Below are positions 2 to 51,765 of a stretch of 54,410 nucleotides of DNA, in pieces. Source of the stretch: a virus. The notes beneath the pieces were generated by a model. It was not told the DNA's origin. It made no database searches and worked only from the letters and a program-made list of their open reading frames with translations. The stretch is from IMG/VR virus record IMGVR_UViG_3300029266_000978, positions 1-54,410 of that record; one strand, written 5' to 3'. The translations under genes and the position numbers were made by a program. Each line of letters opens with the position of its first letter. Within the stretch, counting starts at the first letter, position 1.

Positions 2-3000
2 TCATCTATTCCAACACTTGGAATAATAGACACAACTAATAACGCTAAATTTGTTGCTTATGTTAGAGATTCTGATGCTACTATAGGCACGGAAACAAAC
101 CACCCATTAACTATAAATACTAACAATTCAGAAAGAATGCGAATCCTTTCTAACGGTATGATTGGTGTTGGAACGACTAGTCCTACTACAAGATTAACAA
201 TCAATGGAGACCATAGTGGTAATTTAGCTGCTAGAATGAATATTTATTACCCAGGATCACAAGCTGATAGAAACGCTTATTTAGACATGTGGGCTTCAGA
301 GCCAGGCGTTAGCTATAATGGTTCTGGAATAGGTAGTAATATTCTTGGAACACCATATTATGGTAAAAAGACATCCGTACAAGGAATGGCTTACATTAGA
401 TTTCTTAGTGGTACTATTGGGCTTTGGACGGGTACAGTAGCGAATACAGTTGCTACTGAAAGAATAAATATTAGTGATCAAGGATCTATAAAGTTTAATG
501 CTTACTCAGGTACCGCTAAAACAGGTACTCCAACATACGTATTAGGTACGGACGCATCAGGTAATGTTGTTAAAGTATTAGGTGGTAATATACCAGGCGG
601 TGGTGGTACAGTTACTGGAACAGGTGCTGCTACAAGAGTCGCTTTTTGGAGTGGAACTTCTTCTTTAAGTTCAGATTCTAATTTATACTGGGACAATACA
701 AATGATAGATTAGGTATTGGAGGTGGTACGCCTATAGATAGACTGCAAGTTTATGGTGGTAATAATACAGGTATAACAATTTCTTCTAGCGGTTATGTTG
801 CTAACGCAGGTTCTATGCTAAGGTTTAGAAATGGTAATTCAGAAGAACTTGCGGGAATAAAAGGTTCTTTTGAGCAATCAAATCAAGGGAATTACGGAAA
901 TTTAACATTTCTTACTAGAACAACAGATGCTTTAGGTCTTGAAGAAAAAATGCGTATCACCTCAGGTGGTAATGTTGGTATCGGAACGACTAGTCCTAGT
1001 AGTAAATTACAATTAAAAGGTGATTCAACATATTTAGAGGTTAGAGCAGCTGATAATAGTCAAGCGGTGCAATTAGGTACGGATGGCTCAGGAGACGGTT
1101 TACTTCAACTATATAGCGACGCGGGTGCTGTAAAGATTAAACTATATGGTGAAGCGGCTAGTCCTAGTTTTATTAATGCTGGTAATTTCGGTATTGGGAC
1201 AACTGCTCCTACTCAAAAATTACACGTTGTAGGTAATGTTTTCTTAAGTGCTAATAATGCGTATATAGCAAGCTACGATAATACTACCAATTATCAAGGT
1301 ACTATGAGATGGGCAGGTTTGCAACTGGGAAACAATGGAGCAAATAGAATAGTAGCAGGTAGAACAAACGCAGGAGGTTCATTTCAGTTTTGGACTAATA
1401 ATACTAATGACGCTTCTGATTACACAGTAACTCCAAACGGTGTAATGACTATGTCTATGCTTAATACAGGTAACGTTGGTATTGGGACAACTGCTCCTGC
1501 TGAAAAACTAGTAGTTGTTGGTAACTCAATTACACTTAGCAAAACTAGAGGTCTAGGAACAAACTATGCTACATCAGAAGGATGGGTTGCAAGTTCGGTT
1601 GGCACTTTTACTAGTCAGACTGGTTACTTTACTGGTAGTTTTAATACTATTGGTGGTAGTGCAGAAAACAAAATAGAATATGATATTGGACCATTTGGTT
1701 CAAGAGAACTTGTTTGGATGACAGTACCTGAAACTATCAGCAATGATGATGGTGGTTGGAATAAATCAATGACTGGATTTAATAATTCCGCTAATAACGG
1801 AATGATGTCTGTTGTTTACATGAGAAGAGATGCAGGTACTCCAGCTGGTAATTTTTATCATGGTTGTAGTGGTAGTAATACTTTAAATTTAGATGGATCA
1901 GTAAACGGTAATCCTTACTTTTGCGCATTTGGAATAAGTGTTCTTCCAGCTGATGTATGGTGTGTTTCTATAGGTATAATATATGCAACTAATGACGCTA
2001 ACACTACAGCTTCTTCTTTAACTGGTACTTATAGATTAGATACTGGTGAAAAAATACATAGTGGAACTACTTACAGACAAAAAAGCTCGTTTGCTAATCA
2101 AGAGCAAAGAGTTTATCATTACTATTCAACAAGTCCTAGTGCGCAATTAGATTTTGCAAGACCAGGGTTTTATATAATAGATGGTTCAGAACCTACGCTA
2201 AGTGAAATAACAGCTGGAGCCGCAGGTGGTAGTGATGTTTTTTGGAGTGCAAATGGTAATAATATATATAATGACAATTCTGGTAACGTTGGTATCGGAA
2301 CGGCTAGTCCTAGTGCTAAGTTAAATGTTGTTGGCACTGCTACATTAAAAGATAGTGCTTCTCAAATTACCGTAAATAATGCTGCATATACAGAAATGCA
2401 ATATGGGTCTTCAAATTATTTTAGAACTGACGGAAGCCAAGCTATAATTAACGGCCCTATTATTACTTTTAAAATAGGGGCAATAGAAAAAATGCGTGTT
2501 AATTCTAATGGTAACGTTGGTATTGGAACGACTAGTCCACAACAAAAACTTCACGCAGACGGAAATACTCAGTTAGGTAGAAATGGAAATAACACTGCAG
2601 GCGATCCACAAAAAACTATAATATCTGGCCAAGGAATAGAAGATGTATCTACTGGTAATTTTTACGGTTCTTATGGATTTTTAGAATTAAGTTCAAACAC
2701 TAATTACACAGGAAGCGCAAGGAGATTTGCAATAACAAATGGGCTTCTAGCAAACAAATTTGCTATAATCCGAAGCGATAGTGGTATGGCTACCATGCAA
2801 CTTGGCGTTGCTGGCGCGGTACCTACTGGAGCTACAGCTGATTTTGTTATTGATAATTCAGGTAAGATTGGTATTGGAACGACTACTCCTAATGATAAAT
2901 TAAATATACATAGTCCCACGGCTAGTGCTAATTTAGGTTTAAAAATTACTAGAGGCTCACAAACACACGGATTAAGATTAGGTGTTAATGACTCACACGC

Positions 3001-6000
3001 TTTTTTATGGACAACAGAAAATCAAGATTTAGTATTTGCTACAAATGACTCACAAAGAGTAGTAATACAAGCTGGCGGTAACGTCGGTATTGGAACAACT
3101 ACTCCTGCCAATAAGCTTACAGTTAATGGTACTATAGAGTTAACCACGGTGGGAAATGCTGTTGCTTTTGCAACGTCAGGAGCAGCGGCTTCAAATGGAA
3201 TTAAAACAGTAAATAGTTTTGAAACTGTTATATATAATGGTAGAGGGTCTGCAGGATTTGCAGTTGTTGGAAATTCTGATATTAGATTAGGTTTTGGAAC
3301 AGCGTATACAGCTGCTCAAACTACACTAACGCTAAAGCCCACTCAAGACGCAACTTTTGCAGGTAATGTTGAAACTAATAAAAATATATTTCAAGACATA
3401 GGAAGTAGAGGTGGATATATAATGAGACCTTGGGGAGCCGATTACTTAAACTCTACTGTAGACGTTCACACAGGGGCTATAAAAATAATATTGCCTACTA
3501 CTGGTAATATGGACGATATGCTAAAGTTCACTGTAGATATTTATCAATATCGAAACGGTGAATCTACAAGTGTTGATGTAGCTGGATATATATATCAAGC
3601 ACCTGGTAATAACACTTGGATAAATTGTACAACTATTGTAAACGCTAAAACTGCAGGAGAAAACTATACGGTTAGATATGGTGATGATGGAACCAATCAT
3701 TGCGTATGGATTGGCGAGCTTAACTCAACTTGGAATCACCCACAAGTAATTGTAAGAGATTTCTATGGAGGGTTTTTAACAGATACAAATGCATACTTAT
3801 TAGAATGGGATATTGAGTTTGAGGCAACAGCTTTTGAAGATGTTAATGTAACTCAATCAAATAACTTTCCTATGTCTTCAGGTGGAGTTAGTGGAGCTTT
3901 CTTACCACTAGCTGGTGGAACAATGACTGGCGCTACTTTACATGGAGATAATGTATTATCAAGGTATGGAACCGGCAACGATTTTTCCATTTATCATAAT
4001 GGAACTGATGGATATTTACAAAACGAAACAGGAAATTTAATCATACCAAACGGAAACGTTGGTATTGGAACATCAGCACCTAGTGAATTAGTTAATATAT
4101 TAAAAAACAATTCTGGTGGTGGGGCAAACGGACAAACTTCAATTAAAATTGGGGGGGCTACTAATTATCCTAGTTTAGAATTTGGAATTATTAATAGCTA
4201 CGATGGGATGATTAGAACTTATGGTAATGACTTAGCTATATATGCAGGTCATTGGAGAACTATAGGTGCTGTAGCAAGTGAAGATCATCAAATAAAATGG
4301 CATACTAGTAAAAATGGATCTGCTGACTGGTCAACTCCTAAAATGTACTTAGATCATAATGGGAATCTTGGTATTGGTACGACTAGTCCTGTGTCTACGT
4401 GGTTAAGCGGTTTTGATCCAGCTACAGGAAACGGTACTTTTAAATTAACTTCGGAAGGTTGGATAGTAACTCCTTATAGAACTGGTTTAGCAGGGTATTT
4501 TCCTGGGCAAGGAGCAAGACCTATAGTATGGGCTGATAGTGCTGGTACAAATATTCAGTCTTGGGACAACGGTGCAACAGATGGAGTTAGTATAAGATCT
4601 TCAAATAAATCAGTTAGACTTTTTGTAAGAGAAGATGGTAACGTTGGTATTGGGACAACTAGTCCTTCATCTAAATTAGAAATTTCGGGATTTCCTACTG
4701 CACAAGGATTAAGATTAAATTACGGTAATTCTTCAGGTACTGTTGAAGCTATAAACTTTCAAGCTAACGGTGGAGCAAATGGTGTAATTGGTATGCAAAT
4801 GGTAAGCTCCAATGTAGGTGATTTATGGTTAGGCGGGTCAGCAGGAAGAACATTAACTTTATATAGAAACGGAACCGTTGGTATTGGAACGTCTACTCCT
4901 GCTACAATATTACATGTAGCTGCCGCGAATGCTGTATTAAGAATTGAAGCTACAACAAATGGCCAGAACTGTAGTACATGGTATAAAGCAAATGGAGATA
5001 ATCAATGGGAAACTGGTTGTAATATAGGTGCTGGTACAGATTATCAAATTTATGATCGTCTTAACAGTGCTTCAAGAATGGTTGTTGGCCATAATGGTAA
5101 TGTAACAGTTCCTGGTAAAATAGGTATTGGAACAACTAATCCTGCAGTTGCGTTAGCGGTTGAAGGCCATATAAGATCTATCAATGATAATAGTGGTGAT
5201 TTTCTTGACATATTTTGTGATGGTGATGGAACAGGTAATTCTATTATTAAAACCAGCGCAAATCAGTTAATGCTTATACCACAAACTGGTGTTCTAAACG
5301 TTCAAGGAGAGAATTATGGCTCAGGTACTAATGCTAAAATAGAAATTTTTAATGCTCTTAATGCTGCTGTTAAAGTTAGCTTAAACAGCTCTGGTGATTC
5401 TTATCTTAACGGTGGTGATGTTGGTATTGGGATAACTAATCCTAGTTCTAAATTAGAGGTAGCGGGTTACATAAAAACTAGTGACGGAAACAAAGGAGCT
5501 GCGGCATACACCTTTACAACGGCCGCAAACACGGGAATGTTTAGAGATGGCGGTGCTTTAGCTTTTACAGTTGGAGGAACACAAACCGTATCTATAAACG
5601 CAGGTACAATGGGCGTTGCAGGTAGCCTTATTGTTGGAACAACAGCTTCCATTCCATCAGGAGTTAAATTTAAAGTAGATGGAGTTTCGCTAATTGAAGA
5701 CAGTCCTGGTGTTGCAGATTTTTATTTAGGAAGCTATGCAGGTACTAATCACTTCAGATTCCATACAAACAATTCAGATACTTATTTTGATATGAATTGT
5801 GGTAATTTATATTGGAGAGACGGAGGTTCTACTAGATATACTTTCTTCCCTTCAACTGCTAACATGACTGTTAATGGTACAATAACCCAGAACTCAGATA
5901 TAAGAGTTAAGGAAAATATAATTGAAATAGGTGATTGTATTAGTAAAGTTCAAGCCATGAGAGGTGTTTACTATAATAGAACTGATTTTAACACAGAGGC

Positions 6001-6193
6001 TACTAAAGTTGGTGTTATAGCACAAGAAGTTGAAGCTGTTTTACCAGAGCTTATAGTAGAATCACCTGAAGACGGACTTAAGTCTGTGGCTTACTCAGAA
6101 CTAACAGCTGTGTTAATAAATGCAATAAAAGAACAACAAGAAATTATAGAAGATTTAAAAACAAGAGTAAAACAATTAGAAATTAATAATTAA
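2..6193 (+). CDS. Giant tail fibre with S74 intramolecular chaperone (5' truncated)
   Basis: Virion receptor-binding fibre. The frame is open to the window edge, so the true start lies upstream; ATG 137 is internal, sitting in an ERMRI motif that precedes a repeat. About 15 copies of a [10 protein letters not shown]-type motif, often followed by a SKL/KLxVxG strand, recur from about 160 to 5415 and separate variable beta-rich segments. The C-terminus carries a Peptidase_S74 / intramolecular chaperone domain: [10 protein letters not shown] with the likely catalytic Ser codon at 5894 and Lys at 5909, then [15 protein letters not shown]-like sequence and a terminal coiled coil. In this family the chaperone trimerises the fibre and then cuts itself off. 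The sugar or protein target cannot be read from sequence. Confidence 0.9.
160..5440 (+). repeat. Dispersed [10 protein letters not shown]-coding repeats in tail fibre
   Basis: About 15 near-repeats of a 24-30 base unit (core GTTGGTATTGGAACGACTAG) lie near 160, 715, 970, 1190, 1480, 2285, 2510, 2865, 3080, 4055, 4360, 4640, 4870, 5120 and 5415. Several are nearly identical in DNA as well as protein, while the segments between them differ. The units are too far apart and the spacers too long and coding for a CRISPR array. They could act as homology for swapping or deleting fibre segments. Confidence 0.85.
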
Positions 6194-6961: not shown

Positions 6962-8515
6962 ATGCAATATAATAATCCTAGTGAGATAGTTAAAACTCTT
7001 ACATTCGGAAAAGAAGCGAATGACCAAATAATAGCAGGTGTCGAAAAGTTAGCAAACGCAGTAAAGTCCACATTAGGGGCTTCAGGAAAATGCGTAATTT
7101 ACGAAGACTCTGCAGGAAAACCGGTAATTACAAAAGACGGAGTAACCGTTGCAGAAAGCGTAGTCTTATTACATCCGGTTGAGAATATAGGAGCGACCCT
7201 TATAAAGCAAGCAGCAAGAAACACTGTAAGAGAAGCAGGTGACGGTACAACAACATCTACCGTCCTTGCTAACTCTTTATTAAAGATTACAAACAAACAT
7301 TTAGATGAAGAAAAAGTTAGAGAACTTAAAGCAGGCATTATTAGCGGTGCTGACAAAGTTAAAATATATCTTGATAAAACCAGTACTGTTGTTAAAGGCG
7401 CGATGTTACAAAACGTCGCTATCATTAGCTGCAATAACGATAAAGAACTTGGAACCAAAATTGGCCAAGCTTATGAGCAAGTTGGAAAGAATGGAGTTGT
7501 ATTAATGGAAGAATCCGAAACGAATGAAACTTATGTTGATTTTGTTGAGGGTGTACAATTTGATAGTGGATTAAAGTCTACTCATTTAATAACAGACAAA
7601 GACAAGCATACAGCTGTTTTAGACAACCCTTACGTACTTATTGTTTCTTCTCCTATTCCTAATATAAGAAAGATACAAAGTATCTTAGAACACGTTATAA
7701 AGGAAAAAAGAAGTTTACTTATAGTTGCAGATATGGAACAACAACCATATGCTACATTATTATCAAATAAGGTAAAAGGAAATATAAAAGTAAACATTGT
7801 AGATGTACCAGGTTTTGGATTAACAAGACAAGATACTATGGATGATTTAGCTATTCTTACCGGAGCCATTATAATGAACGAAGAATTAGGTGATGATTTA
7901 GATTTAATTAATCCTGAGGTATTAGGTAGCGTTAAGAAATCTGTTACAGATGAAAAGTCTACAGTATTACAAATTGAAGCTTCTGATGATGTTACTGAAC
8001 GAATAGCTGAAGTAACTAAAAGTATAGAGAATGAAAATAATCCATTCTTTAAAAAGAAATTAGAACAACGCTTATCAATGCTATCTGGACAAGTTGGCAT
8101 TATATATGTAGGAGCTGATACAGAAATAGAATTAAAAGAAAAGAAAGATAGAGTAGAGGATGCAATTCATGCAACCAAAGCGGCTTACAAAGAAGGTATT
8201 GTTGCAGGAGGTGGAGTTGCTTTATTAAATGCTGCCATGTCTATTAAGCCAAAAAACAAAGGAGAAGAGATTCTTTTGGAATCAATTAAATCACCTTATT
8301 ATACTATTTTAGATAATGCGGGTATTGTTGAGATTAAAAAACAAACCATAAAGAATAGGGGTATTGATGTTAAGACTGGCAAAGAAGTTAATATGATTAA
8401 AGCCGGTATTATAGATCCAGTGTTAGTTACTAAGTCTGCTCTTAAAAATGCAGTAAGTGTAGTAACAACTATTGTATCTGCCGATTGTGTAATTAGTAAT
8501 AAAAGATTAGCATAA
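6962..8515 (+). CDS. groL: Phage GroEL-like chaperonin (Cpn60)
   Basis: ATP-driven folding chamber, probably for phage capsid or fibre proteins. At 517 residues it is slightly shorter than E. coli GroEL (548). Equatorial ATP-site motifs are intact: KDGVTVA with D59 (GroEL Asp52), GDGTTT at 93-98 with D94 (Asp87), and D400 in DRVEDAIHAT (Asp398). GIVAGGGVALL at 412-422 and the C-terminal GIIDPVLVTKSALKNAVSVV segment are present. The usual Gly-Gly-Met tail is missing; the protein ends in NKRLA. Its stop overlaps the groES start (TAATG), indicating translational coupling. Confidence 0.95.
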   Translation: MQYNNPSEIVKTLTFGKEANDQIIAGVEKLANAVKSTLGASGKCVIYEDSAGKPVITKDGVTVAESVVLLHPVENIGATLIKQAARNTVREAGDGTTTSTVLANSLLKITNKHLDEEKVRELKAGIISGADKVKIYLDKTSTVVKGAMLQNVAIISCNNDKELGTKIGQAYEQVGKNGVVLMEESETNETYVDFVEGVQFDSGLKSTHLITDKDKHTAVLDNPYVLIVSSPIPNIRKIQSILEHVIKEKRSLLIVADMEQQPYATLLSNKVKGNIKVNIVDVPGFGLTRQDTMDDLAILTGAIIMNEELGDDLDLINPEVLGSVKKSVTDEKSTVLQIEASDDVTERIAEVTKSIENENNPFFKKKLEQRLSMLSGQVGIIYVGADTEIELKEKKDRVEDAIHATKAAYKEGIVAGGGVALLNAAMSIKPKNKGEEILLESIKSPYYTILDNAGIVEIKKQTIKNRGIDVKTGKEVNMIKAGIIDPVLVTKSALKNAVSVVTTIVSADCVISNKRLA

Positions 8516-8772
8516 TGCAAGCAATCAATTATTTTTTAATTATAGAAAAGATCAAAGAAGCTCCGAAGAAAGTAGGAGGTATTGAATTGACAGAAAAGCA
8601 AGATAGCGACGTTAGATATTTAAAAGCTAATGTAATTAGTGTAGGAGATAAGATTGAAGGCATTAAACCCGGTGCTTCTATAAGGTACGATAAACACGCA
8701 GGTCACGGAATAGAATGGAATGACAAGCTTTATTATGTTATTAAAGTTAGCGATGTAGTTATTGTAGAATGA
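8515..8772 (+). CDS. groS: GroES-like co-chaperonin
   Basis: 85 residues, the lid partner of the adjacent GroEL. The beta-strand start (NYFLIIEKIKEA), mobile loop with GGIELTEKQ at 21-29 (GroES GGIVLT), VISVGDKI, the IKPGASIRY turn and the ending VSDVVIVE match the GroES pattern. The roof hairpin is shortened compared with the usual 95-97 residues. It starts in a TAATG overlap with groEL and ends in an ATGA overlap with the next gene, so the three are very likely co-translated. Confidence 0.92.
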   Translation: MQAINYFLIIEKIKEAPKKVGGIELTEKQDSDVRYLKANVISVGDKIEGIKPGASIRYDKHAGHGIEWNDKLYYVIKVSDVVIVE

Positions 8773-9209
8773 GGTTAACGCCTACAGATCTAAGAGAAAT
8801 AAATTTATTTAAGTATTACAGGCTTGTCAGACGATGGGCTTGTAAAACTTATAATTTAAAAGATGCAGACTTAGAGCTGTTAGTTTATCTAGACTGCAAA
8901 GAATTTTTTACTCGCAATGATTTTATAAACGGTATATACACATATACCTGGGATAAAAACAGATGGGAAAGATTAAGAAGAAAAGGATGGATCGATGTAT
9001 TTAAAGAACGTAATAGAACTACTTCTAAATATGCGGTATATAAAGTTTCTTTAAAAGGTAAACATTTAATAAGTAGAATATATAGAATATTATTAGCGGA
9101 AGAAGATTTACCTACATCGGCTAGAAGTGTTTTTTATAACAATAAAACATATACAGACAAAGTTTTTAACAAGGCTATTGATGATATGATAAGAGATAAA
9201 GATAGATAA
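8769..9209 (+). CDS. MarR-like winged-helix protein
   Basis: 146 residues, likely DNA-binding. The order resembles a MarR-type winged helix: an N-terminal helix (LFKYYRLVRRWACKTY), LKDADLELLVYLDCKEFFTRNDF, a recognition helix around TWDKNRWERLRRKGWI, a wing with ERNRTTSKYAVYKVS, and a C-terminal helix LKGKHLISRIYRILLAEE. It starts in an ATGA overlap with groES and its TAA shares bases with the next ATG. Position amid late genes suggests late-stage control or a virion-borne regulator. Family assignment is by eye. Confidence 0.6.
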   Translation: MRLTPTDLREINLFKYYRLVRRWACKTYNLKDADLELLVYLDCKEFFTRNDFINGIYTYTWDKNRWERLRRKGWIDVFKERNRTTSKYAVYKVSLKGKHLISRIYRILLAEEDLPTSARSVFYNNKTYTDKVFNKAIDDMIRDKDR

Positions 9210-9589
9210 TGGATTTTAAATTAAAAGATTTTTCAGAACTTGTTGGTATAGACAAAGAAACTTCTACATATAGTACTCCTGTATTTAAAAAAGACTTGGA
9301 TGGAACTATAATGGGTGAAGCTAATAATGATGGAACAATCTTTATTGACAAATCATTAAAAGGTAAAGACAAGACAGAAGCAGTTGAACATGAAAAAGTT
9401 CATTTAGATCAAATGGCTCAAGGTAAACTTCAGTACACTAATGACACTGTTACCTGGAAAAAAGATACGAAATCACCGCCTAGAGTATATAAAAGAGAAG
9501 GTGGAATGTTAATAGACGAAAAAACAGGTGAAAGCGCAGAAGAAGGTGGTGCTTTTGAATGGGAAGACGAAGCATATAATAAAAAATAA
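9209..9589 (+). CDS. Minimal zinc metallopeptidase-like protein (HExxH)
   Basis: 126 residues. HEKVH at 61-65 within VEHEKVHLDQMAQG is a zincin HExxH motif. A downstream WEDEAY at 118-123 fits the EA-type third zinc ligand of gluzincins such as DUF4157-like proteins. No signal peptide or other domain is visible, so the whole protein is roughly a bare catalytic core. It is coupled to the MarR-like gene by a TAATG junction and leads into the basic-protein cluster, which could be its substrates. Activity is inferred from motifs only. Confidence 0.6.
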   Translation: MDFKLKDFSELVGIDKETSTYSTPVFKKDLDGTIMGEANNDGTIFIDKSLKGKDKTEAVEHEKVHLDQMAQGKLQYTNDTVTWKKDTKSPPRVYKREGGMLIDEKTGESAEEGGAFEWEDEAYNKK

Positions 9590-14815: not shown

Positions 14816-15035
14816 AGAACTTATTAAAGTAGCTAAGGAGGCTATTGTTGATTCAGGAGAAGATATTACAGCGGATAGATTAAAGAATGCAGCGGCAACT
14901 AAAAAGCTAGCTATATTTGATGCGTTCGAAATTCTTAACAGAATACAAGAGGAGCAAGATATTCTTGATGAAAAACCTAGAGAAATAAAAGAAGAAGAGT
15001 CTTTCAAAGGTTTTGCTGAAAAAAGATCTAAATAA
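14760..15035 (+). CDS. Candidate small terminase subunit
   Basis: 91 residues from ATG 14760, overlapping the upstream gene by 56 bases; an in-frame ATG at 14712 would overlap by 104. The helical sequence AGHKAVEELIKVAKEAIVDSGEDITADRLKNAAATKKLAIFDAFEILNRI fits a small all-helical DNA-packaging protein. Its stop overlaps the large terminase start (TAATG), the usual place for TerS. No clear helix-turn-helix is visible, so the call rests mainly on position, size and helical content. Confidence 0.5.
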   Translation: MNIKETKKNIILAGHKAVEELIKVAKEAIVDSGEDITADRLKNAAATKKLAIFDAFEILNRIQEEQDILDEKPREIKEEESFKGFAEKRSK

Positions 15036-17248
15036 TGTACAAGCAAACATTATATAAAATAATAACTCCTGTCAAATCAAACACTATATCTAGGCTAAAT
15101 AAAGCTAAGAAGTGGGAATATGGTTATAACAAAGAACACGATATTGTGGTTATAAGCAAGACAGGACAAATAGGTGATATATATAATATACAAAATCTTA
15201 AAATAGCATTACCTAAAAGACCATCTAAAATAGATGATTCTACTAACAAGTGGACACCAGAAGAATATCCTAAAGAGTTAAAGGCTATTAATAGCATATT
15301 TGACTGGAGGGATTATCCTGAAACGTTCAAATTAAAATGGGGACAATACATAGATGAGCAATTTAATAAAAGAGAAAACGGTTACTGGTTCAATAATAAG
15401 GGCTTGGGTACTTACATTACTGGTACTCACTTTATGTACCTGCAGTGGTCCAAGATTGATGTTGGGCAACCAGACTTTAGAGAATCAAATAGATTATTCT
15501 ACATTTTCTGGGAAGCTTGTAAAGCAGACAGACGATGTTATGGTATGTCATATCTCAAGAATAGACGTAGCGGCTTTTCATTCATGGCGTCTGGCGAGAC
15601 CGTTAATATGGCCACGATATCAAGTGATGCACGGTTTGGGATTTTGTCCAAATCTGGCGCCGATGCGAAAAAAATGTTCACTGATAAGGTTGTACCCATT
15701 AGTGTTAACTTCCCGTTTTTCTTTAAACCAGTACAGGATGGGATGGACCGCCCAAAGACCGAACTCGCCTATCGTGTACCCGCATCAAAATTTACCAGGA
15801 GGAGACTCGATAATAATAAAGCCACTGAAACCATCGCCGGTCTGGACACGACCATCGACTGGAAGAACACAGGTGATAACGCCTATGATGGGGAGAAACT
15901 CAAACTCCTCGTCCACGACGAAAGTGGTAAATGGGAAAGGCCGAACAACATCCTCAACAATTGGCGTGTTACCAAAACGACATTAAGATTAGGTTCTAGA
16001 ATTATTGGAAAGTGTATGATGGGATCAACATCAAATGCTTTAGATAAAGGTGGTTCAAATTTTAAAAAGTTATATAACAATTCAAACGTATTAAAAAGAA
16101 ACAAGAACGGGCAAACAGCTTCAGGATTATATTCTCTTTTTATTCCTATGGAATGGAATTATGAAGGATTTATTGATGAATATGGATATCCTGTTTTTGA
16201 TACACCTAAAGACACTGTTCTGGGCCCGTTTAAAGACGTTATAGACGTTGGGGTTATTGAGCACTGGAATAATGAGGCTGAAGGATTAAAGAGCGATCAG
16301 GATGCTTTAAATGAATTTTATAGACAGTTCCCAAGAACAGAGGAACATGCGTTTAGAGATGAAACAAAAAATAGTATATTTAATTTAGTTAAAATATACG
16401 AACAAATAGATTACAATGAGGACTTACATAATACAAATGTATTAACAACTGGAAGTTTTCAATGGGCTAGCGGTATAAAAGACTCTACAGTTTTATTTAC
16501 GCCTAATCCAAATGGTAGATTTAAAATATCTTGGGTTCCTGGTGCAAATTTGCAAAACAGGCAAGAGGTTAGAAAAGGATTAAGAATTCCAGGTAATCAA
16601 CATATGGGTGCTTTTGGTTGTGATAGTTATGATATATCAGGAACAACTGATGGCCAAGGATCTAAGGGTGCTTTGCACGGATTGACTAAATTCAGCATGG
16701 AAGATGCTCCCGCTAATACATTTTTTTTAGAGTATATAGCTAGACCACAAACCGCTGAAATGTTTTTTGAAGATGTACTAATGGCTTGCGTATTTTATGG
16801 TATGCCTTTATTATGTGAAAATAACAAACCAAGACTTTTATATTATTTTAAAAGAAGAGGCTATCGAGGATATTCTATGAATAGACCTGATAAGGTTTGG
16901 AATAAGTTATCGGTTACCGAAAGAGAAATAGGTGGAATGCCTAACTCAAGTGAAGATATTAAGCAAGCTCATGCAGCGGCTATTGAAACATATATTGATA
17001 ATTATGTCGGATTACAAGAAGATGGTCAGTATGGAACAATGTATTTTAATAATACATTAAATGATTGGGCAGGATTTGATATAAACAATAGAACGAAGTT
17101 TGATGCTGCTATAAGTTCTGGACTTGCTGTAATGGCTTGTAACAGACATTTATATCATCCAAAACAAAAAGTTGAAAGAGAACAATTAAGTTTAAAAATA
17201 GCTAAATACACCAACAGTGGTGGTTTATCAAAATTAATAGAAAAATAA
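15035..17248 (+). CDS. terL: Terminase large subunit
   Basis: ATPase-nuclease that pumps DNA into the prohead. 737 residues. A degenerate Walker A region is KNRRSGFS at 175-182; Walker B is KLLVHDE with D295/E296. A C-terminal RNase H-like nuclease is marked by the acidic strand GAFGCDSYDIS and a later Asp/Glu-containing VMACVFY/LLCENN region typical of Bacteroidetes-phage TerL. It sits between the TerS candidate and portal. Codon use changes abruptly between about 15550 and 15985, which covers Walker A to just past Walker B (see findings). Confidence 0.9.
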   Translation: MYKQTLYKIITPVKSNTISRLNKAKKWEYGYNKEHDIVVISKTGQIGDIYNIQNLKIALPKRPSKIDDSTNKWTPEEYPKELKAINSIFDWRDYPETFKLKWGQYIDEQFNKRENGYWFNNKGLGTYITGTHFMYLQWSKIDVGQPDFRESNRLFYIFWEACKADRRCYGMSYLKNRRSGFSFMASGETVNMATISSDARFGILSKSGADAKKMFTDKVVPISVNFPFFFKPVQDGMDRPKTELAYRVPASKFTRRRLDNNKATETIAGLDTTIDWKNTGDNAYDGEKLKLLVHDESGKWERPNNILNNWRVTKTTLRLGSRIIGKCMMGSTSNALDKGGSNFKKLYNNSNVLKRNKNGQTASGLYSLFIPMEWNYEGFIDEYGYPVFDTPKDTVLGPFKDVIDVGVIEHWNNEAEGLKSDQDALNEFYRQFPRTEEHAFRDETKNSIFNLVKIYEQIDYNEDLHNTNVLTTGSFQWASGIKDSTVLFTPNPNGRFKISWVPGANLQNRQEVRKGLRIPGNQHMGAFGCDSYDISGTTDGQGSKGALHGLTKFSMEDAPANTFFLEYIARPQTAEMFFEDVLMACVFYGMPLLCENNKPRLLYYFKRRGYRGYSMNRPDKVWNKLSVTEREIGGMPNSSEDIKQAHAAAIETYIDNYVGLQEDGQYGTMYFNNTLNDWAGFDINNRTKFDAAISSGLAVMACNRHLYHPKQKVEREQLSLKIAKYTNSGGLSKLIEK

Positions 17249-17252
17249 AAAT

Positions 17253-19682
17253 ATGGCTGAGTCAGTTGTAACAAGTTATTTTCCAAGCCAGATTGCTAGC
17301 GATGCGGAAAAAATGTCTATGGACTATGGAACTACTATTGGTAGAGCTATAGAACGTGAGTGGTTTAATAATGACAATGGTGGTGGTAGTAGGTTTAAAA
17401 GCAATCAAATTACATTTCACAATTTAAGATTATACGCAAGAGGAGAACAACCAATACAAAAATACAAAGATGAATTATCTATAAATGGAGATTTATCTTA
17501 TCTTAATTTAGACTGGAAACCAGTTCCAATTATACCCAAATTTGTGGATATAGTTGTTAATGGTATATCTGATAGATTATTTGACATAAGAGCTTATTCT
17601 CAAGATCCTTACGGAGTTGATAAAAGAACAAGGTATATGGAATCTCTTATTAGAGATATGCAAACAAAAGAACTTAATACTTTTGTTCAAGAAAATTTTG
17701 GTGTTAATTTATTTGAAAACAATCCAGAAACATTACCTAAAAACAAAGAAGAATTAGATTTACATATGCAGCTTACCTATAAGCAGCAAGTAGAAATTGC
17801 GGAAGAACAAGCAATACAGGTACTACTAGATGGTAACAAATATGACTTAACTAAAAGACGTTGTAATTATGATTTAACTACAATAGGTATTGGTGCAGTT
17901 AAAAATACTTTTACAAAAGCTGAAGGAGCTTTAATTGATTATGTAGATCCAGTAAATTTAATTTGGTCTTATACAGAATCACCTTATTTTGATGACATAT
18001 ATTATGTAGGAGAAGTAAGGTCTGTGCATTTAAATGAATTAAAAAAAGAATTTCCTGGATTAACTAATGATGAATTGCAATCAATTGCAGGTCAGTCAGT
18101 TAGTAACAATGGGTTTTATGATAGAACTATTAGCACTTCTAACCAGGACGATTCCAATACTGTTCAAGTCCTTTATTTTAATTATAAGACTTTTACAAAC
18201 GAAGTTTATAAAGTTAAAGAGACGGCAACAGGAGCTGCAAAGATAATACCTAAAACTGATGAATTTAATCCTCCGCCAGAAATGTATGAGGAGTATGGTA
18301 TTGAAAAATTATCTCAATCAATAGAAGTATTATATGAGGGAGTTAAAGTTGTAGGGGGCAGAATGCTTAAATGGGAGCTAGCTAAAAACATGATAAGACC
18401 TAAGAGTGATTACACTAAGGTTAAAATGAATTATAGTATTACAGCACCTAGAATGTATAAAGGTAGAATAGAATCTGTAGTAAGTCGTATAACAGGCTTT
18501 GCAGATATGATTCAACTTACACATTTAAAGCTACAACAAGTAATGTCAAGAATGGTGCCGGATGGTGTTTATCTTGATGCTGATGGTTTAGCTGAAGTTG
18601 ATTTAGGTAATGGTACAAATTACAATCCTCAGGAAGCTCTTAATATGTTTTTTCAAACAGGTTCTGTAATTGGTAGATCTATGACCCAAGACGGTGATAT
18701 GAATCCAGGCAAAGTACCTATTCAAGAAATACAAACCGGTGCAGGTGGTGGAAAAATGCAAGCATTAATTGGAAATTACAATTATTACATGCAAATGATT
18801 CGCGATGTAACTGGATTAAACGAAGCTAGAGATGGAAGTACTCCTGACGCAAGAGCTTTAGTGGGTGTTCAAAAAATGGCAGCAGCTAATTCAAATGTTG
18901 CAACAAGACATATATTAGACGGTAGTTTATTTTTAACGTCGGATTTATGCGAAGGGTTATCATTAAGAATATCCGATATTTTAGAATACTCTCCAACACG
19001 AGATGCTTTTATACATAAAATAGGTAATCAAAATGTAGCAGTTCTTGAAGAAATGAAAGACTTATATTTATACGACTTTGGTATCTTTATTGAATTACAA
19101 CCAGATGAAGAAGAAAGAGCTATATTGGAAAACAATATTCAAGCAGCTGTTCAAAGCGGATTAATAGATTTATCGGATGCCATTGATCTTAGAGAAGTAA
19201 GAAGTCTTAAACTTGCTAATCAATTGCTAAAAATAAGAAGAGTAGCTAAGCAAAAGCTGGATCAAGAAATGCAACAGCAAAACATCCAAGCTCAGGCTCA
19301 AGCCAATGCTCAAGCACAACAAGTGGCTGCTCAAGCAGAAGTTCAAAAAGGCCAAGCTTTAATACAACAAAAAATTGCATTAGTGCAAGCTCAAGCAGAA
19401 ATAGACAAACAAAAAATGATGCAAGAAGCTGCTTTGAAAAAAGAGTTAATGCAATTAGAGTTTGAAATGAACATGCAGCTTAAAGGTATTGAAGTTAGCG
19501 GGGTTAAAAGAGAAATTACGGAAAAAGAAGATAGAAAGGACGAAAGAACTAAACTACAAGCTTCTCAACAAAGTGAACTAATACAACAAAGACAAAACAA
19601 TTTGCCAGCTCAAAACTTTGAATCAAGTGGATTTGATACAATGGGCGGTGGTTTTAACTTAGGTTCGTCAGACCCTAGGTAA
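17253..19682 (+). CDS. Portal protein
   Basis: Forms the dodecameric DNA channel at the capsid vertex. 809 residues, four bases after terL. N-terminal motifs include YARGEQPIQKYKDEL and DWKPVPIIPKFVDIVVNGISDRLFD, typical of podovirus-type portals. A central stretch (SVVSRITGFADMIQLTHLKLQQVMSRM) and RDVTGLNEARDGSTPDARALVGVQKMA follow. The C-terminal 150 residues are a Gln/Ala-rich coiled coil (about 650-770), consistent with a long barrel extending into the capsid. It lies between terL and scaffold. Confidence 0.88.
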   Translation: MAESVVTSYFPSQIASDAEKMSMDYGTTIGRAIEREWFNNDNGGGSRFKSNQITFHNLRLYARGEQPIQKYKDELSINGDLSYLNLDWKPVPIIPKFVDIVVNGISDRLFDIRAYSQDPYGVDKRTRYMESLIRDMQTKELNTFVQENFGVNLFENNPETLPKNKEELDLHMQLTYKQQVEIAEEQAIQVLLDGNKYDLTKRRCNYDLTTIGIGAVKNTFTKAEGALIDYVDPVNLIWSYTESPYFDDIYYVGEVRSVHLNELKKEFPGLTNDELQSIAGQSVSNNGFYDRTISTSNQDDSNTVQVLYFNYKTFTNEVYKVKETATGAAKIIPKTDEFNPPPEMYEEYGIEKLSQSIEVLYEGVKVVGGRMLKWELAKNMIRPKSDYTKVKMNYSITAPRMYKGRIESVVSRITGFADMIQLTHLKLQQVMSRMVPDGVYLDADGLAEVDLGNGTNYNPQEALNMFFQTGSVIGRSMTQDGDMNPGKVPIQEIQTGAGGGKMQALIGNYNYYMQMIRDVTGLNEARDGSTPDARALVGVQKMAAANSNVATRHILDGSLFLTSDLCEGLSLRISDILEYSPTRDAFIHKIGNQNVAVLEEMKDLYLYDFGIFIELQPDEEERAILENNIQAAVQSGLIDLSDAIDLREVRSLKLANQLLKIRRVAKQKLDQEMQQQNIQAQAQANAQAQQVAAQAEVQKGQALIQQKIALVQAQAEIDKQKMMQEAALKKELMQLEFEMNMQLKGIEVSGVKREITEKEDRKDERTKLQASQQSELIQQRQNNLPAQNFESSGFDTMGGGFNLGSSDPR

Positions 19683-42647: not shown

Positions 42648-42664
42648 CTAACTAACTAACTAAC
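42648..42664 (+). repeat. CTAA tandem repeat at nrdA end
   Basis: Four CTAA units plus C lie between the terminator and the end of nrdA. On the minus strand this reads TTAG repeats overlapping the nrdA stop, giving stop codons in several frames. It is probably a simple-sequence tract with no larger structure; the terminator loop carries a related CTAACTAAA. Confidence 0.6.
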
Positions 42665-44378
42665 CATCACACGCTACGCAATCTTCATTCATTGCTTGAG
42701 CGGCAATATCTCCACGTAGAACACTTTCTGTTCTAGTATAATATAAAGTTTTTACTCCATTTTTCCACGCATCCATATGCACTTTGTTAAGCCACTTAGG
42801 TGTTGCTTCACTTGGAAAAGCTAAGTTTAAACTTACTGATTGATCTATATACTGCTGTCTTAATCCAGCCTGCTTAACTAATTCTAATTGATTTATCTCT
42901 TTAAAAGTTTTAAAAACTTCTTTCGCAGGTATATCATGCCCAACTCTAATATCATTAAGTTGATCAATATCTTGTACGGAACCTCCGTCAGCAAGTATCT
43001 TATTCCATACTTCTTCATTATTTAATTTGTGTTTTCTTAATAACTTAACTAATGTAGGATTCTTCCTTATAAAAGTTCCTTTAGCGCTTTGCTCTGTAAA
43101 TACATTAGCAGCCCAAGGTTCTATCCCCGCAGAAACATTACCACTAAGCTTACTATTAGATACAGTGGGAGCAACAGCACGCAAATGAGTATTACGCATA
43201 CCAGTACCAACACACCAAAGAGGTTCACCATAGATCTCTGCAAGGTCCATTGAAGCTCGCTCACTTTCAATTTTAATCTGCGAAAAAATCTTCCTAGTCT
43301 CAAACTGAGATAATAAACCTTCGAAAGGAATACCTTTTTCCTGGAGATATGTATGCCATCCAAGTGCGCCCAATCCCAGTGCTCTCCCTTTTTGTGCAGA
43401 TCGAATAGAGTTTTCGAACCCACGTAAGCCTTTGGCTCTCTGAATAAATTCTTCCATAACGCCATCAAGAAAGAATATGGAGTCATATATAAGGTTAGTG
43501 TCTTTCCACTCTTCATACTTAGCTAAATTTAATGATGATAAACAACATACAAAACTATGGTTTTCATCTGTGTGTAATGTAATTTCAGAGCATATGTTTG
43601 TCATATGAACTTTTAATCCGTTTTGTTTATATGCTGGAGGATTAGCTTTATTAACATTTCCTTTAAACATAATATAAGGTTCTCCTGTTGCTTTACGCTT
43701 TCTAAGTAGCTTGCTCCATTTATTTCTAGATTCAGGATCTCCTTGTTCTAGCTTACGCATAAACTTATCTCCTACTACTGCACATTGATGCAAGTTAAGT
43801 GATTGTCTATTTACATCTCCTTTAGGTTCTCTAATCTCAAGCCAGTCTTCAAAATCCCCATGCTCTATATTCATATTAACACTCGCAGCACCTCTTCTAA
43901 CTGAGCCTTGGTTTGTAGCTAATATAGTAGAATCATATATTTTACAGAAGGGTACAACACCATCAGAAGTTCCATTTCCAGTTATTCTAGTTCCTGCAGG
44001 TCTTATTTGATTAATACCAATTCCTACACCGCCGCCGTGTTTAGCTAGCAACATCATTTCTAAATTCTTTTGACCTATGTCCTGGATAGAGTCTGCAACA
44101 TCAATGCCAAAGCAAGAGATAGGGAGGCCACGGTCAGTACCAGTATTACTAAGTACCGGACTTGCGAGGCATAACCATCCATTCCATATGTAACTAAAAA
44201 ACGTTTCAGCCATTTCAGGCTTATATAATCTACGAGCAACTGTTTTAGCGACTCTTTGGTATGCTTCTTTAGGCGTTTCTCCGTCGAATAAATATCCCCC
44301 GGATATAGTCTTCTTGTATACGTCTGTATTACCCCACGCAGGGTAATCTTCTCCTTTAATCCAGTTTTCATTCCACAT
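42660..44378 (-). CDS. nrdA: Ribonucleoside-diphosphate reductase, class I alpha subunit
   Basis: Makes deoxynucleotides by reducing ribonucleotides, with NrdB. 572 residues, much shorter than E. coli NrdA (761), and it lacks the N-terminal ATP-cone activity site, so dATP feedback is probably absent. The active-site set is present: C89 (PISCFG), N261-I-C263-S-E265, and C278/C279 in FVCCLSSLNL as second redox Cys; LYYTRTES carries the paired Tyr of the radical path. The C-terminus has CVACDG (C567, C570) for rereduction. It is the last gene of the minus operon. Confidence 0.95.
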   Translation of the reverse strand: MWNENWIKGEDYPAWGNTDVYKKTISGGYLFDGETPKEAYQRVAKTVARRLYKPEMAETFFSYIWNGWLCLASPVLSNTGTDRGLPISCFGIDVADSIQDIGQKNLEMMLLAKHGGGVGIGINQIRPAGTRITGNGTSDGVVPFCKIYDSTILATNQGSVRRGAASVNMNIEHGDFEDWLEIREPKGDVNRQSLNLHQCAVVGDKFMRKLEQGDPESRNKWSKLLRKRKATGEPYIMFKGNVNKANPPAYKQNGLKVHMTNICSEITLHTDENHSFVCCLSSLNLAKYEEWKDTNLIYDSIFFLDGVMEEFIQRAKGLRGFENSIRSAQKGRALGLGALGWHTYLQEKGIPFEGLLSQFETRKIFSQIKIESERASMDLAEIYGEPLWCVGTGMRNTHLRAVAPTVSNSKLSGNVSAGIEPWAANVFTEQSAKGTFIRKNPTLVKLLRKHKLNNEEVWNKILADGGSVQDIDQLNDIRVGHDIPAKEVFKTFKEINQLELVKQAGLRQQYIDQSVSLNLAFPSEATPKWLNKVHMDAWKNGVKTLYYTRTESVLRGDIAAQAMNEDCVACDG

Positions 44379-44379
44379 A

Positions 44380-44589
44380 TTATATTTCTAGTTTTTTCTC
44401 TGCAATATCTTCTGCTGCTTTTGCTTGTAGTTCAGAAATAGCATGATCATATCCAGGCATTAGTTTAATTGTTTCTAAAGTACCTATTCCTAAGTCTTTA
44501 AAGTTTTGAGCTTCTGCCATAAGATAATTTGTAATCTTACCTAAAGTCTCAATTTTGTTTTTCATTTCTAATAAAGTCTGTTCTTTCAT
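44380..44589 (-). CDS. Small protein between nrdB and nrdA
   Basis: 69 residues from ATG 44589; an upstream TTG would overlap nrdB. MKEQTLLEMKNKIETLGKIT is followed by a helical segment, LGIGTLETIKLMPGYDHAISELQAKA and an acidic-basic end. No Cys and no glutaredoxin or thioredoxin motif, so it is not an electron donor. It is coupled between the two reductase subunits (one base before nrdA, 17 bases after nrdB). An accessory or regulatory partner of the reductase is possible but unproved. Confidence 0.55.
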   Translation of the reverse strand: MKEQTLLEMKNKIETLGKITNYLMAEAQNFKDLGIGTLETIKLMPGYDHAISELQAKAAEDIAEKKLEI

Positions 44590-44606
44590 TTTATTGTTTT
44601 TTAAGT

Positions 44607-45575
44607 TTACCAAATATCTTCATAGTCTTCACCTTCGCCTGCTTTCGAATAGTCGGTCGGACGAATAGCAAAAAAATCAGTGTGGGTAACGCCCCCGGTA
44701 AGATGATAAAACCAATCAAGGTTAGAAGCCGCCGCGGTGTCATATGCAAAATACGATCCCGGGTCAACATAACCCAATTCAACAAGTTTTTCATTTGTTC
44801 TCTTCTTTATAAAGTGTTTTAGATCTATTGCTTTAATGCCTTCAATATCACCCATTTCAAACATCTTATCAATATACTTAGTTTCTAATTTAACCATTGC
44901 TTCTGCAGCAGCTATTATATCTTCACGACATAAATGCAGTAATTGATTGTCTTCTTCACACATATGACGGAATAATTGACAACCCATCTTACTATGCAAA
45001 GACTCATCTCTTACAGACCATTTCATTTGTTGCCCTATACCTTTAAGTAAATTGCGTAACTGAAATGAATACAATACAGCAAAAGCAGAATATAAACTGA
45101 CACCTTCTGCGAACGCGCTAAAGACCGCCAATGATTTTGCGATACCAGAGCTAGAATTACCGCTGTAAGCAACCAAATTGTTAAACCGCTCAGCAGTAGC
45201 GGGTTCATGTAAAAAAGCTTCATAATTTTCTAATTTTAATGTTTCATTTAAATAGCTATAAGCTACTGCATGTACAGTCTCTTGCGAGCCAAACATCATC
45301 GCCATCTGTTGTATTTCGTGTTTAGGAAACCACGATACGACTTTCTGGGTCCAGTAATCTGAAACAGCGCATTCGGTTTGCGCGAATCCAAGAAGTATGT
45401 TCCCAACAAGGTGTTTTTCTTTTTCATCTAATTTTTCATTCCAATCTTTAATATCACTTTGCATGCTTATCTCGGTGTGTAACCAAAATGCTTGTGCTTG
45501 CTTTAACCATCCCTCTGTGTAGTATTCTGGATACTCAAAAGGCTTATACGCTACGCGCTCATCGAACAGTCCCAT
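44607..45575 (-). CDS. nrdB: Ribonucleoside-diphosphate reductase, class I beta subunit
   Basis: Carries the dimetal site and tyrosyl radical that start catalysis in NrdA. 322 residues. Ligands fit the family spacing: E68 (first ligand), E99, H102, E157, E191, H194; the radical Tyr is Y106 in HAVAYSY. The first ligand is Glu rather than the usual Asp (see findings). The C-terminus (EGEDYEDIW) is the acidic, Tyr-bearing tail that docks on NrdA. Its ATG shares bases with the stop of the upstream gene (TAATG). Confidence 0.93.
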   Translation of the reverse strand: MGLFDERVAYKPFEYPEYYTEGWLKQAQAFWLHTEISMQSDIKDWNEKLDEKEKHLVGNILLGFAQTECAVSDYWTQKVVSWFPKHEIQQMAMMFGSQETVHAVAYSYLNETLKLENYEAFLHEPATAERFNNLVAYSGNSSSGIAKSLAVFSAFAEGVSLYSAFAVLYSFQLRNLLKGIGQQMKWSVRDESLHSKMGCQLFRHMCEEDNQLLHLCREDIIAAAEAMVKLETKYIDKMFEMGDIEGIKAIDLKHFIKKRTNEKLVELGYVDPGSYFAYDTAAASNLDWFYHLTGGVTHTDFFAIRPTDYSKAGEGEDYEDIW

Positions 45576-45733
45576 TATTTATAAACGGTTAAGGCTAGAT
45601 CAACAAAAGGTATGTATAGCACATACGTAGTTTGTTCTGATTCAGCATATGTTCTCATACCTAGGCATATACCTGGATAAGTTCCTAATTCTAGGATCCA
45701 AGCGCCTTTGTCTTCATCTTCTTTAAAATTCAT
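45575..45733 (-). CDS. Small conserved phage protein, 52 residues
   Basis: Start ATG 45733 overlaps the upstream gene by four bases (ATGA) and its stop overlaps nrdB (TAATG). The product reads MNFKEDEDKGAWILELGTYP, then GICLGMRTYAESEQTTYVLYIPFVDLALTVYK. The W-IL-LGTYPGI-LG-R...VLYIPFVD layout recurs in short phage genes I have seen near nucleotide-metabolism genes. Two tight couplings and uninterrupted use of the strand support a real gene. Function unknown. Confidence 0.65.
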   Translation of the reverse strand: MNFKEDEDKGAWILELGTYPGICLGMRTYAESEQTTYVLYIPFVDLALTVYK

Positions 45734-45894
45734 ATAATTCCATGTTTTTTTTGTAGTTCAACTATATCTTTATATTTAACCTTACCTTTAATTTCCCAGC
45801 TCCATTTAACAAACTTGTCAATTTGGCGCTCAGCATATTTTTGTCTGGCTATTTTTTTTGCTTGGAAAGGATTAACCTTACTGTCTCTTGACAT
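45730..45894 (-). CDS. Small hypothetical protein, 54 residues
   Basis: ATG 45894 lies inside the end of the upstream nuclease gene (46-base overlap) and the TGA overlaps the next ATG. MSRDSKVNPFQAKKIARQKY, ERQIDKFVKWSWEIKGKVKYKD and VELQKKHGII form two basic helices. The ATGA junction and coding continuity make it plausible. It is not recognised; a small DNA-binding role would fit the charge. Confidence 0.5.
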   Translation of the reverse strand: MSRDSKVNPFQAKKIARQKYAERQIDKFVKWSWEIKGKVKYKDIVELQKKHGII

Positions 45895-46307
45895 TCTAAT
45901 TGATTTTGAGGTTTATAAATAGTATATCCTGGAAATTGAGTAGTAACTAATTGTTTAAATAGTTTCCATCGCATTGGGAATGACTCATTAGCTCTACCTT
46001 TTGTTTCAATTATAAAATCCTCACCTATAAAGTCTGGAGTATATTTAATAGGTAAAATTCTTTTCTCACCTCTATTTTTATAATCTCCTTTACCATTAGC
46101 TTGTCTTTCATAGACTTGATTTTCAAAATGAAAACCATTTAATAAAACAAAGGTTTCTCCTTCATATTTGCTTTTTATGCCCGCTTCTTTCATGGCTACG
46201 TACATATGCTTTTCAAGTCCTGAAGCAAAGTCAATACCATCATATGATACTTTCTTTGCTCTAACTGGACCTCGCTTGCCGCTCTTTCTTTTAAAAGGTT
46301 TTCGCAT
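45849..46307 (-). CDS. Endonuclease I-like Holliday-junction resolvase
   Basis: 152 residues from ATG 46307 (an upstream ATG would overlap the neighbouring gene more). The basic start RKPFKRKSGKRGPVRAKKV is followed by FASGLEKHMYVAMKEAGIKSKYE, then YTPDFIGEDFIIETKGR. The E, D and ExK residues match T7 endonuclease I (SGLE..., YTPDF..., ETKG), a PD-(D/E)XK nuclease that resolves branched DNA and debranches replication products before packaging. It sits in the replication operon, 17 bases overlapping the MazG-like gene. Confidence 0.75.
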   Translation of the reverse strand: MRKPFKRKSGKRGPVRAKKVSYDGIDFASGLEKHMYVAMKEAGIKSKYEGETFVLLNGFHFENQVYERQANGKGDYKNRGEKRILPIKYTPDFIGEDFIIETKGRANESFPMRWKLFKQLVTTQFPGYTIYKPQNQLECQETVRLILSKQKK

Positions 46308-46530
46308 CTTGTTCTTGTAAATCTTCTGTGTAAACTTCTTTAGCTTTTTGTAAATACAATACAGCATCCATAAGTTCTTCTTGTAAATGATTAAGCCATT
46401 CAAACATTGCTGCTGGATCTTGCTCAAGAGTTACGCCATACTTTTTAAAGCCTACGTCAGATCTTGATACAAACTTTGTTACAACTCTTTCTACAACTGG
46501 ATCTCTAAATTCTATTTGTTTTGTTTTCAT
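46291..46530 (-). CDS. Small MazG-like phage protein
   Basis: 79 residues. FVSRSDVGFKKYGVTLEQDPAAMFEWLNHLQEELMDAVLYLQKAKE matches a small family with a helical EWLxHLxEELxDAxxY core, reminiscent of the all-alpha NTP pyrophosphohydrolase half-fold (EExxD). It begins in an ATG/TAA-type overlap with the GIY-YIG/MazG gene (46530) and its end overlaps the resolvase. It may pair with the MazG half of its neighbour. No full EExxE...ExxD set is seen, so catalysis alone is doubtful. Confidence 0.6.
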   Translation of the reverse strand: MKTKQIEFRDPVVERVVTKFVSRSDVGFKKYGVTLEQDPAAMFEWLNHLQEELMDAVLYLQKAKEVYTEDLQEQDAKTF

Positions 46531-47294: not shown

Positions 47295-47302
47295 AGTTTT
47301 TA

Positions 47303-48130: not shown

Positions 48131-48374
48131 AATAGTATTTACAATATTCAAATATTTTCTGCCATATGACAGTCTTTTCATAACTCTCGGGACTTTGGTT
48201 TGTTGATCCTTTATTTGTTATAACAACATACCATTCAGTGGTAGACTTTGCTTTAGGTGCTATAGCTATGCCATTGTTTACACACCATCTATATGCTTCC
48301 CAATCTTTGGAATCATATCCGGTTATACCCATATCGATAGAACCTTTACGCTTCTTGCCTATACCACTACCCAT
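48111..48374 (-). CDS. Small hypothetical protein, 87 residues
   Basis: A basic start (MGSGIGKKRKGSIDMGITGY) is followed by SKDWEAYRWCVNNGIAIAPKAKSTTEWYVVITNKGSTNQSPESY and an aromatic helical end (IWQKIFEYCKYYYEKHRK). Start ATG 48374 immediately precedes the primase stop on this strand, and the end overlaps thyA by 20 bases. The layout is that of a small alpha/beta phage protein of unknown function; no catalytic motif seen. Confidence 0.6.
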   Translation of the reverse strand: MGSGIGKKRKGSIDMGITGYDSKDWEAYRWCVNNGIAIAPKAKSTTEWYVVITNKGSTNQSPESYEKTVIWQKIFEYCKYYYEKHRK

Positions 48375-50096: not shown

Positions 50097-50153
50097 TTAT
50101 TTAATTTAATTTAATTAATTATTCTCCTACTAAAGGGATATGTTTGTCTGTAC

Positions 50154-50462: not shown

Positions 50463-50464
50463 AA

Positions 50465-51696: not shown

Positions 51697-51702
51697 ATTG
51701 GT

Positions 51703-51718
51703 ATTTGGTTTTGGTTTA
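51703..51718 (-). promoter_or_regulatory. Shared gene-leader motif, copy 2
   Basis: On the minus strand this reads TAAACCAAAACCAAAT and lies just before the ERF gene start (51696). It is identical to 6633-6648 on the plus strand. Confidence 0.35.
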
Positions 51719-51754: not shown

Positions 51755-51765
51755 AATTGTTTATT

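What the first reader, a model, noticed from the sequence alone, without database searches (positions are those of the whole stretch)
6962..8772. Phage-encoded GroEL and GroES pair with no host-type C-terminal tail
The sequence shows a full GroEL (ATP-site Asp residues intact) and a GroES with a shortened roof, joined by TAATG. Phage GroES-like proteins are known, but a complete GroEL/GroES set inside a late operon is uncommon. The missing Gly-Gly-Met tail suggests a chamber tuned to phage proteins.
Basis: partly seen in the sequence, partly recalled or inferred. Interest (0 to 1): 0.7.

Follow-up and report, generated by a model that had tools for sequence, protein, structure and literature searches.

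The report
Phage-encoded GroEL/GroES folding-chamber pair
A marine virus of (probably Bacteroidota) bacteria carries its own two-gene protein-folding machine, a GroEL barrel and a GroES lid; such pairs are already known in related phages, but this whole viral lineage has lost the contacts that normally hold two GroEL barrels back to back, and the roof of the lid, so it may run as a single open-topped barrel.

Summary
In detail: window 6962-8515 encodes an intact 517-aa GroEL and 8515-8772 an 85-aa GroES, joined by TAATG; ATP-site Asp52/87/398 are present, the Gly-Gly-Met tail is absent and the GroES roof is deleted. The reading is partly right. It is a virus-owned pair under purifying selection, not a recent host copy, but it is not uncommon: 81 of 81 loci of its own family, 13 of 13 elemovirus-type and 69 of 80 of a third family carry GroEL followed by GroES, and isolated Flavobacterium, Cellulophaga and Maribacter phages have pairs. 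Tail loss is general in these phage GroELs (0 of 174 keep it) and says little about tuning. More telling: the two salt bridges joining GroEL's rings are possible in 37 and 39 of 39 cellular GroELs and in 0 of 91 family members; the loop holding E461/S463/V464 (mutated in single-ring mutant SR1) is deleted. Best explanation: a phage folding chamber working as a single ring with its own roofless lid. Phage single-ring chaperonins are known (OBP, AR9) but work without a lid. Single-ring behaviour is inferred, not shown.

The parts
6962..8515 (+). GroEL (group I chaperonin), 517 aa, no GGM tail, ring-ring contact loop deleted
8515..8772 (+). GroES (co-chaperonin lid), 85 aa, mobile loop kept (GGIEL at residues 21-25), roof hairpin deleted
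8513..8517 (+). TAATG: GroEL stop / GroES start overlap, expected to couple translation
   Evidence: sequence
8769..9209 (+). 146-aa protein of unknown function whose start overlaps the GroES stop; conserved next to the pair in 81 of 81 family loci
   Evidence: no Pfam match
9209..9589 (+). 126-aa protein with an HExxH (HEKVH) zincin-like motif, found next to the pair in 79 of 81 loci; motif kept in 73 of 79
   Evidence: no Pfam match

Best explanation
A phage-owned, working group I chaperonin and its own co-chaperonin, encoded together in the strand of structural genes, that fold phage proteins during virion production. SHOWN by sequence: intact GroEL with the full ATP site, GroES with conserved docking residues, overlap of the two genes, strict co-occurrence, purifying selection, long independent descent in phages. 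INFERRED: the GroEL works as a single heptameric ring rather than a back-to-back double ring, because the cross-ring contacts are deleted or variable throughout the family; the GroES caps that ring through its I/L-E-L mobile loop but, lacking the roof, leaves a wider dome, as T4 gp31 does; without a second ring to eject the lid, the altered apical docking surface (L234Q, V264S/A, Y203H) would have to give looser lid binding. Substrates (capsid, tail or fibre proteins) are unknown.
For: Pair and fold; AlphaFold model pLDDT 84.9, best PDB matches E. coli GroEL Z 44.9 and human Hsp60 single ring Z 44.1 (a fold match does not itself speak for a single ring); GroES model pLDDT 88.2 matches Hsp10/GroES chains (top E 4e-6) and, more weakly, gp31 (E 3e-3, 11% identity). 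Selection: dN/dS about 0.04-0.09 for GroEL and 0.02-0.14 for GroES. Co-occurrence: 81/81, 13/13, 69/80. Ring interface: R452-E461 pair possible in 37/39 cellular against 0/91 family members; K105-E434/D435 39/39 against 0/91; remaining interface sites at the 88th percentile of equatorial variability against the 48th. The 461-464 deletion is seen for the window protein by MAFFT and by phmmer; the model shows no helix Q, as in phage EL (PMC7185714). SR1 = R452E/E461A/S463A/V464A (PMC12696368); mitochondrial Hsp60 lacks the same two salt bridges (PMC5575113). Lid: positions 25 and 27 are I/L and L/I/M/F in 50/50 distinct window-family GroES; the Glu at position 26 fits the report that V26D, unlike I25D or L27D, does not abolish binding (PMC5575113).
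Against: No ring was modelled or measured. Phage EL chaperonin also lacks helix Q yet forms double rings through other contacts (PMC7185714), and human Hsp60 forms transient double rings. For the elemo and manatee families the position of the gap shifts between alignments, so the deletion is firm only for the window family. The cellular controls are mostly one phylum plus a few others; modern Bacteroidota GroELs were not available. Lid-binding strength cannot be read from sequence.
Confidence: 0.55

Rival explanations
1. Ordinary double-ring GroEL/GroES with a remodelled (not lost) ring interface, doing what host GroEL does but supplied in extra amount late in infection.
For: Full-length GroEL fold, intact ATP site and GroES docking residues; phage EL shows that a different ring interface can replace the usual one (PMC7185714).
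Against: Both conserved cross-ring salt bridges absent in 91/91, contact loop deleted, remaining interface sites highly variable, where a replacement interface would be expected to be conserved.
Confidence: 0.3
2. The phage GroES mainly works with the host GroEL (as T4 gp31 does) and the phage GroEL is an independent, lid-free holdase like phage EL, OBP or AR9 chaperonins.
For: Roofless lid as in gp31 (PMC6318259); known phage single-ring chaperonins need no lid (PMC9598537); 11 of 80 manatee-family loci show no GroES near GroEL.
Against: GroEL and GroES overlap in 78 of 81 window-family loci and co-occur in 81 of 81, and GroES is under purifying selection with it.
Confidence: 0.12
3. A recent copy of a host groESL operon, or a cellular contig mistaken for virus.
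For: GroEL is a near-universal cellular gene and some 'phage' records with GroEL are plainly cellular contigs (e.g. Acinetobacter MD-2021a).
Against: At most 43% identity to the cellular or ancestral GroELs aligned; reversed gene order (31/31 cellular loci have groES first); terminase, portal and tail fibre in the same window; own clade 100/100; in a scan of 84,980 cellular genomes with six query-specific peptides only one family-level match (62%), on a contig that carries the phage neighbourhood.
Confidence: 0.01

Closest known systems
GroEL-GroES pair of Podoviridae sp. ctfjg026 (MW202828, Manatee Spring) and its viral-contig family
   Same: Same order (GroEL then GroES, overlapping), no GGM tail, roofless GroES; its terminase is the closest among named phage records (61.7%)
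   Different: GroEL only about 36% identical; many relatives have other sequence or genes between GroEL and GroES
GroEL-GroES pair of Flavobacterium elemoviruses (MT497098 and others, 68 records)
   Same: Same order with the same 1-base overlap, roofless GroES of 83-84 aa, no tail
   Different: GroEL about 38% identical; there the pair lies on the strand opposite to its neighbours
Cellulophaga phage phi38:1/phi40:1 (Callevirus) GroEL and Cpn10
   Same: Phage-owned pair in a Bacteroidota phage; GroES roof also missing; GroEL detected by mass spectrometry (PMC13288928)
   Different: GroES lies before GroEL with a gene between
Phage EL, OBP and AR9 chaperonins
   Same: Phage GroEL relatives with altered ring-ring contacts or single rings (PMC7185714, PMC9598537)
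   Different: About 21% identical for EL; reported to work without a co-chaperonin
T4 gp31
   Same: Phage co-chaperonin without the GroES roof loops (PMC6318259)
   Different: Longer mobile loop, works with host GroEL, no phage GroEL; fold match weak here
Human mitochondrial Hsp60/Hsp10
   Same: Lacks the same two cross-ring salt bridges and exists largely as single rings (PMC5575113)
   Different: Cellular; about 36% identical over the aligned fold

Membership tests
Group I chaperonin (GroEL/Cpn60) | Cpn60 sequence and fold over the whole length | tested here: met
   Pfam E=2.5e-47, residues 30-514; GroEL structures at the top of the fold comparison, Z 44.9
Group I chaperonin (GroEL/Cpn60) | ATP-site residues incl. 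D52, D87, D398 | tested here: met
   Present, invariant in 91/91
Group I chaperonin (GroEL/Cpn60) | Works with a separate GroES lid | tested here: inconclusive
   Cognate GroES gene co-occurs 81/81; binding not tested
Group I chaperonin (GroEL/Cpn60) | Conserved double-ring contacts (K105-E434/D435, R452-E461, S463, V464) | tested here: not met
   0 of 91 against 39/39 and 37/39 cellular. The salt bridges are lacking also in an accepted member, mtHsp60 (PMC5575113), so this lowers 'double-ring GroEL', not 'group I chaperonin'
Group I chaperonin (GroEL/Cpn60) | Gly-Gly-Met C-terminal tail (usual, not defining) | tested here: not met
   0 of 174 phage relatives; 31/31 cellular controls have a Gly-rich tail (slightly broader pattern)
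Co-chaperonin (GroES/Cpn10) | Cpn10 barrel with mobile loop and hydrophobic docking residues 25 and 27 | tested here: met
   Pfam E=1.8e-8; model; I/L and L/I/M/F in 50/50
Co-chaperonin (GroES/Cpn10) | Roof beta-hairpin closing the dome (usual, not defining) | tested here: not met
   Columns 46-54 deleted in 114/114; also absent in gp31 (PMC6318259), so it does not exclude membership
Single-ring chaperonin | Heptamer that does not pair into 14-mers | not testable with these tools
   Only the interface residues could be examined
Giant-phage lid-free chaperonins (EL/OBP/AR9) | No cognate GroES needed | tested here: inconclusive
   A cognate GroES gene is present, but whether it is needed was not tested; EL itself only about 21% identical

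The most novel reading that the evidence does not exclude
A natural phage-encoded single-ring GroEL that works with its own GroES, the lid being roofless and its grip weakened so that it can be released without a second ring: a viral counterpart, reached independently, of the mitochondrial Hsp60/Hsp10 cycle and of engineered SR1 systems with loosened GroES.
Probability: 0.4. Interest if true: 0.62.

Novelty: new variant of a known kind. Interest (0 to 1): 0.4.

Why it matters
Phage chaperonin pairs are known and widespread, so the pair itself is not news. If the single-ring reading holds, this large viral family would be natural proof that a minimal one-ring chaperonin with a cognate lid can cycle, and would give hundreds of natural sequences for asking how lid release works without ring-to-ring signalling, a question so far addressed mainly with mutants (SR1) and mitochondrial Hsp60.

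Tried and rejected
Recent host copy or contamination: rejected by tree, gene order and neighbourhood. The GGM-tail loss as a special trait: rejected, general in these phages. A numbering error of one in my first residue table was found and corrected. A single clade of window+elemo+manatee is neither shown nor rejected (p-AU 0.21). Modern Bacteroidota GroELs could not be fetched as controls; the reconstructed ancestral Bacteroidetes-group protein (PDB 9rwr) stood in. Promoter and terminator scan was uninformative (23 promoter-like sites, shuffles 14.7 +/- 3.7). Marine et al. 2017, the key earlier survey, is not in the held library; what I know of it rests on its citation in PMC7185714 and on memory. 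A look for phi38:1 GroEL in virions failed for a term error and was not repeated.

Full report
WHAT IS THERE. The window is a 54,410-base virus record. On the + strand, 6962-8515 encodes 517 aa and 8515-8772 encodes 85 aa, sharing one base in TAATG; the next gene (8769-9209) overlaps the GroES stop by four bases. Pfam and PHROG name them GroEL and GroES with strong scores. The genes from the tail fibre (137-6193; S74 chaperone end) through the pair to terminase (15035-17248) and portal (17253-19682) lie on the + strand; nucleotide-metabolism and replication genes lie on the - strand. So 'inside the late strand' is fair, though no transcription data exist.

HOW COMMON. 262 of 50,697 phage records match the GroEL protein, all at under 60% identity, some of them plainly cellular contigs. 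Scanning IMG/VR with the window protein gave 216 loci, with a distant relative (Manatee Spring phage) 442, with the elemovirus protein 14. Among those kept, GroES follows GroEL on the same strand in 81/81, 13/13 and 69/80 loci (the 81 include one contig binned in a cellular MAG), and none of 174 complete GroELs has the Gly-rich tail. Cellular controls have groES first (31/31) and a Gly-rich tail (31/31). Earlier work already reported GroEL in 36 environmental genomes of Flavobacteriaceae phages related to phi38:1 (PMC5332604), both genes in phage Panino (PMC11590407) and, as cited in PMC7185714, phages with both genes (Marine et al. 2017). The nearest named phage by terminase is MW202828 (61.7%), then elemoviruses (44.7%): a relative of Bacteroidota podoviruses; the host is inferred.

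DESCENT. The window family is one clade (100/100) on a long stem; in the larger tree the window, elemo, manatee and Panino proteins group at 93/88 apart from cellular GroELs. In a smaller tree this group plus phi40 has SH-aLRT 98; the three main families alone as one clade are not rejected (p 0.21), while window plus the ancestral Bacteroidetes-group protein is rejected (p 0.003). Long branches call for care. In the cellular collection the six query peptides found only one family-level match, on an 8.3-kb contig with the same phage neighbourhood, binned in an Alphaproteobacteria MAG. dN/dS is under 0.2 for both genes in the pairs compared where it could be computed: both are in use.

ANATOMY OF THE GROEL. 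The ATP site aspartates are intact in 91/91. The model has the full GroEL fold. Two deletions stand out, at E. coli about 427-434 and 461-464, seen with MAFFT and phmmer. They remove partners of both cross-ring salt bridges, K105-E434/D435 and R452-E461, and S463/V464; R452 is Tyr here and in about half of the family. SR1, the classic single-ring mutant, is R452E/E461A/S463A/V464A (PMC12696368). Bridge-capable pairs: 39/39 and 37/39 cellular, 0/91 and 0/91 here; leftover interface sites sit at the 88th percentile of variability in the equatorial domain, against the 48th in cells. The model lacks helix Q (coil 453-465; block pLDDT 77-84), as reported for phage EL (PMC7185714). The apical docking face is changed too (L234Q 91/91, Y203H 90/91, V264 to Ala/Ser 88/91).

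ANATOMY OF THE GROES. The barrel and mobile loop are kept; the roof is deleted in 114/114 distinct sequences across three families. Docking positions 25 and 27 stay I/L and L/I/M/F; position 26 is Glu in 49/50 of this family. In E. coli V26D is tolerated while I25D and L27D are not (PMC5575113). Gp31 of T4 also lacks the roof, which leaves a wider opening (PMC6318259).

HOW IT MOST LIKELY WORKS. Phage GroEL and GroES are made together, form a chamber, and fold phage proteins. A single-ring GroEL with normal GroES is trapped shut; loosened lid binding restores cycling (PMC5575113). The altered docking face together with the lost ring interface fits a single-ring cycle. This last step is inference; the known phage single-ring chaperonins OBP and AR9 are reported to need no lid (PMC9598537), so a lidded one would be new as far as the papers read here go.

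VERDICT. A real, conserved, virus-owned chaperonin pair of a known kind; the structural variant (no ring interface, roofless lid) is the part worth testing.

Noticed in passing
window 8769-9589: Two small genes follow the pair in nearly every family locus (81/81 and 79/81): a 146-aa protein whose start overlaps the GroES stop, and a 126-aa protein with an HExxH zinc-protease-like motif (kept in 73 of 79). They could be partners or clients of the chaperonin; neither has a Pfam match.
   Followed up: partly
window 137-6193: 2018-aa tail fibre full of repeated VGIGTTSP-like segments, ending in a Peptidase_S74 intramolecular chaperone domain; its C-terminal third is not conserved beside the pair (found in 14 of 42 loci with room).
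   Followed up: partly
L100 1-8332: Phage contig with the same gene neighbourhood binned in a GTDB Alphaproteobacteria MAG (DQLC01000067.1); the MAG (about 1.1 Mb) shows only one Cpn60 match. Likely a binning error.
   Followed up: partly
L118, L137, L143, L183, L192: In the manatee family different unrelated genes sit between GroEL and GroES (for example a 185-aa protein in L192 that looks by eye like a 2OG-Fe(II) oxygenase), so the pair is interrupted there while the order persists.
   Followed up: no
window 42660-53129, - strand: Ribonucleotide reductase large and small subunits, thymidylate synthase, MazG-like protein, Toprim/DnaB-like primase-helicase and a sigma-70-like factor.
   Followed up: no
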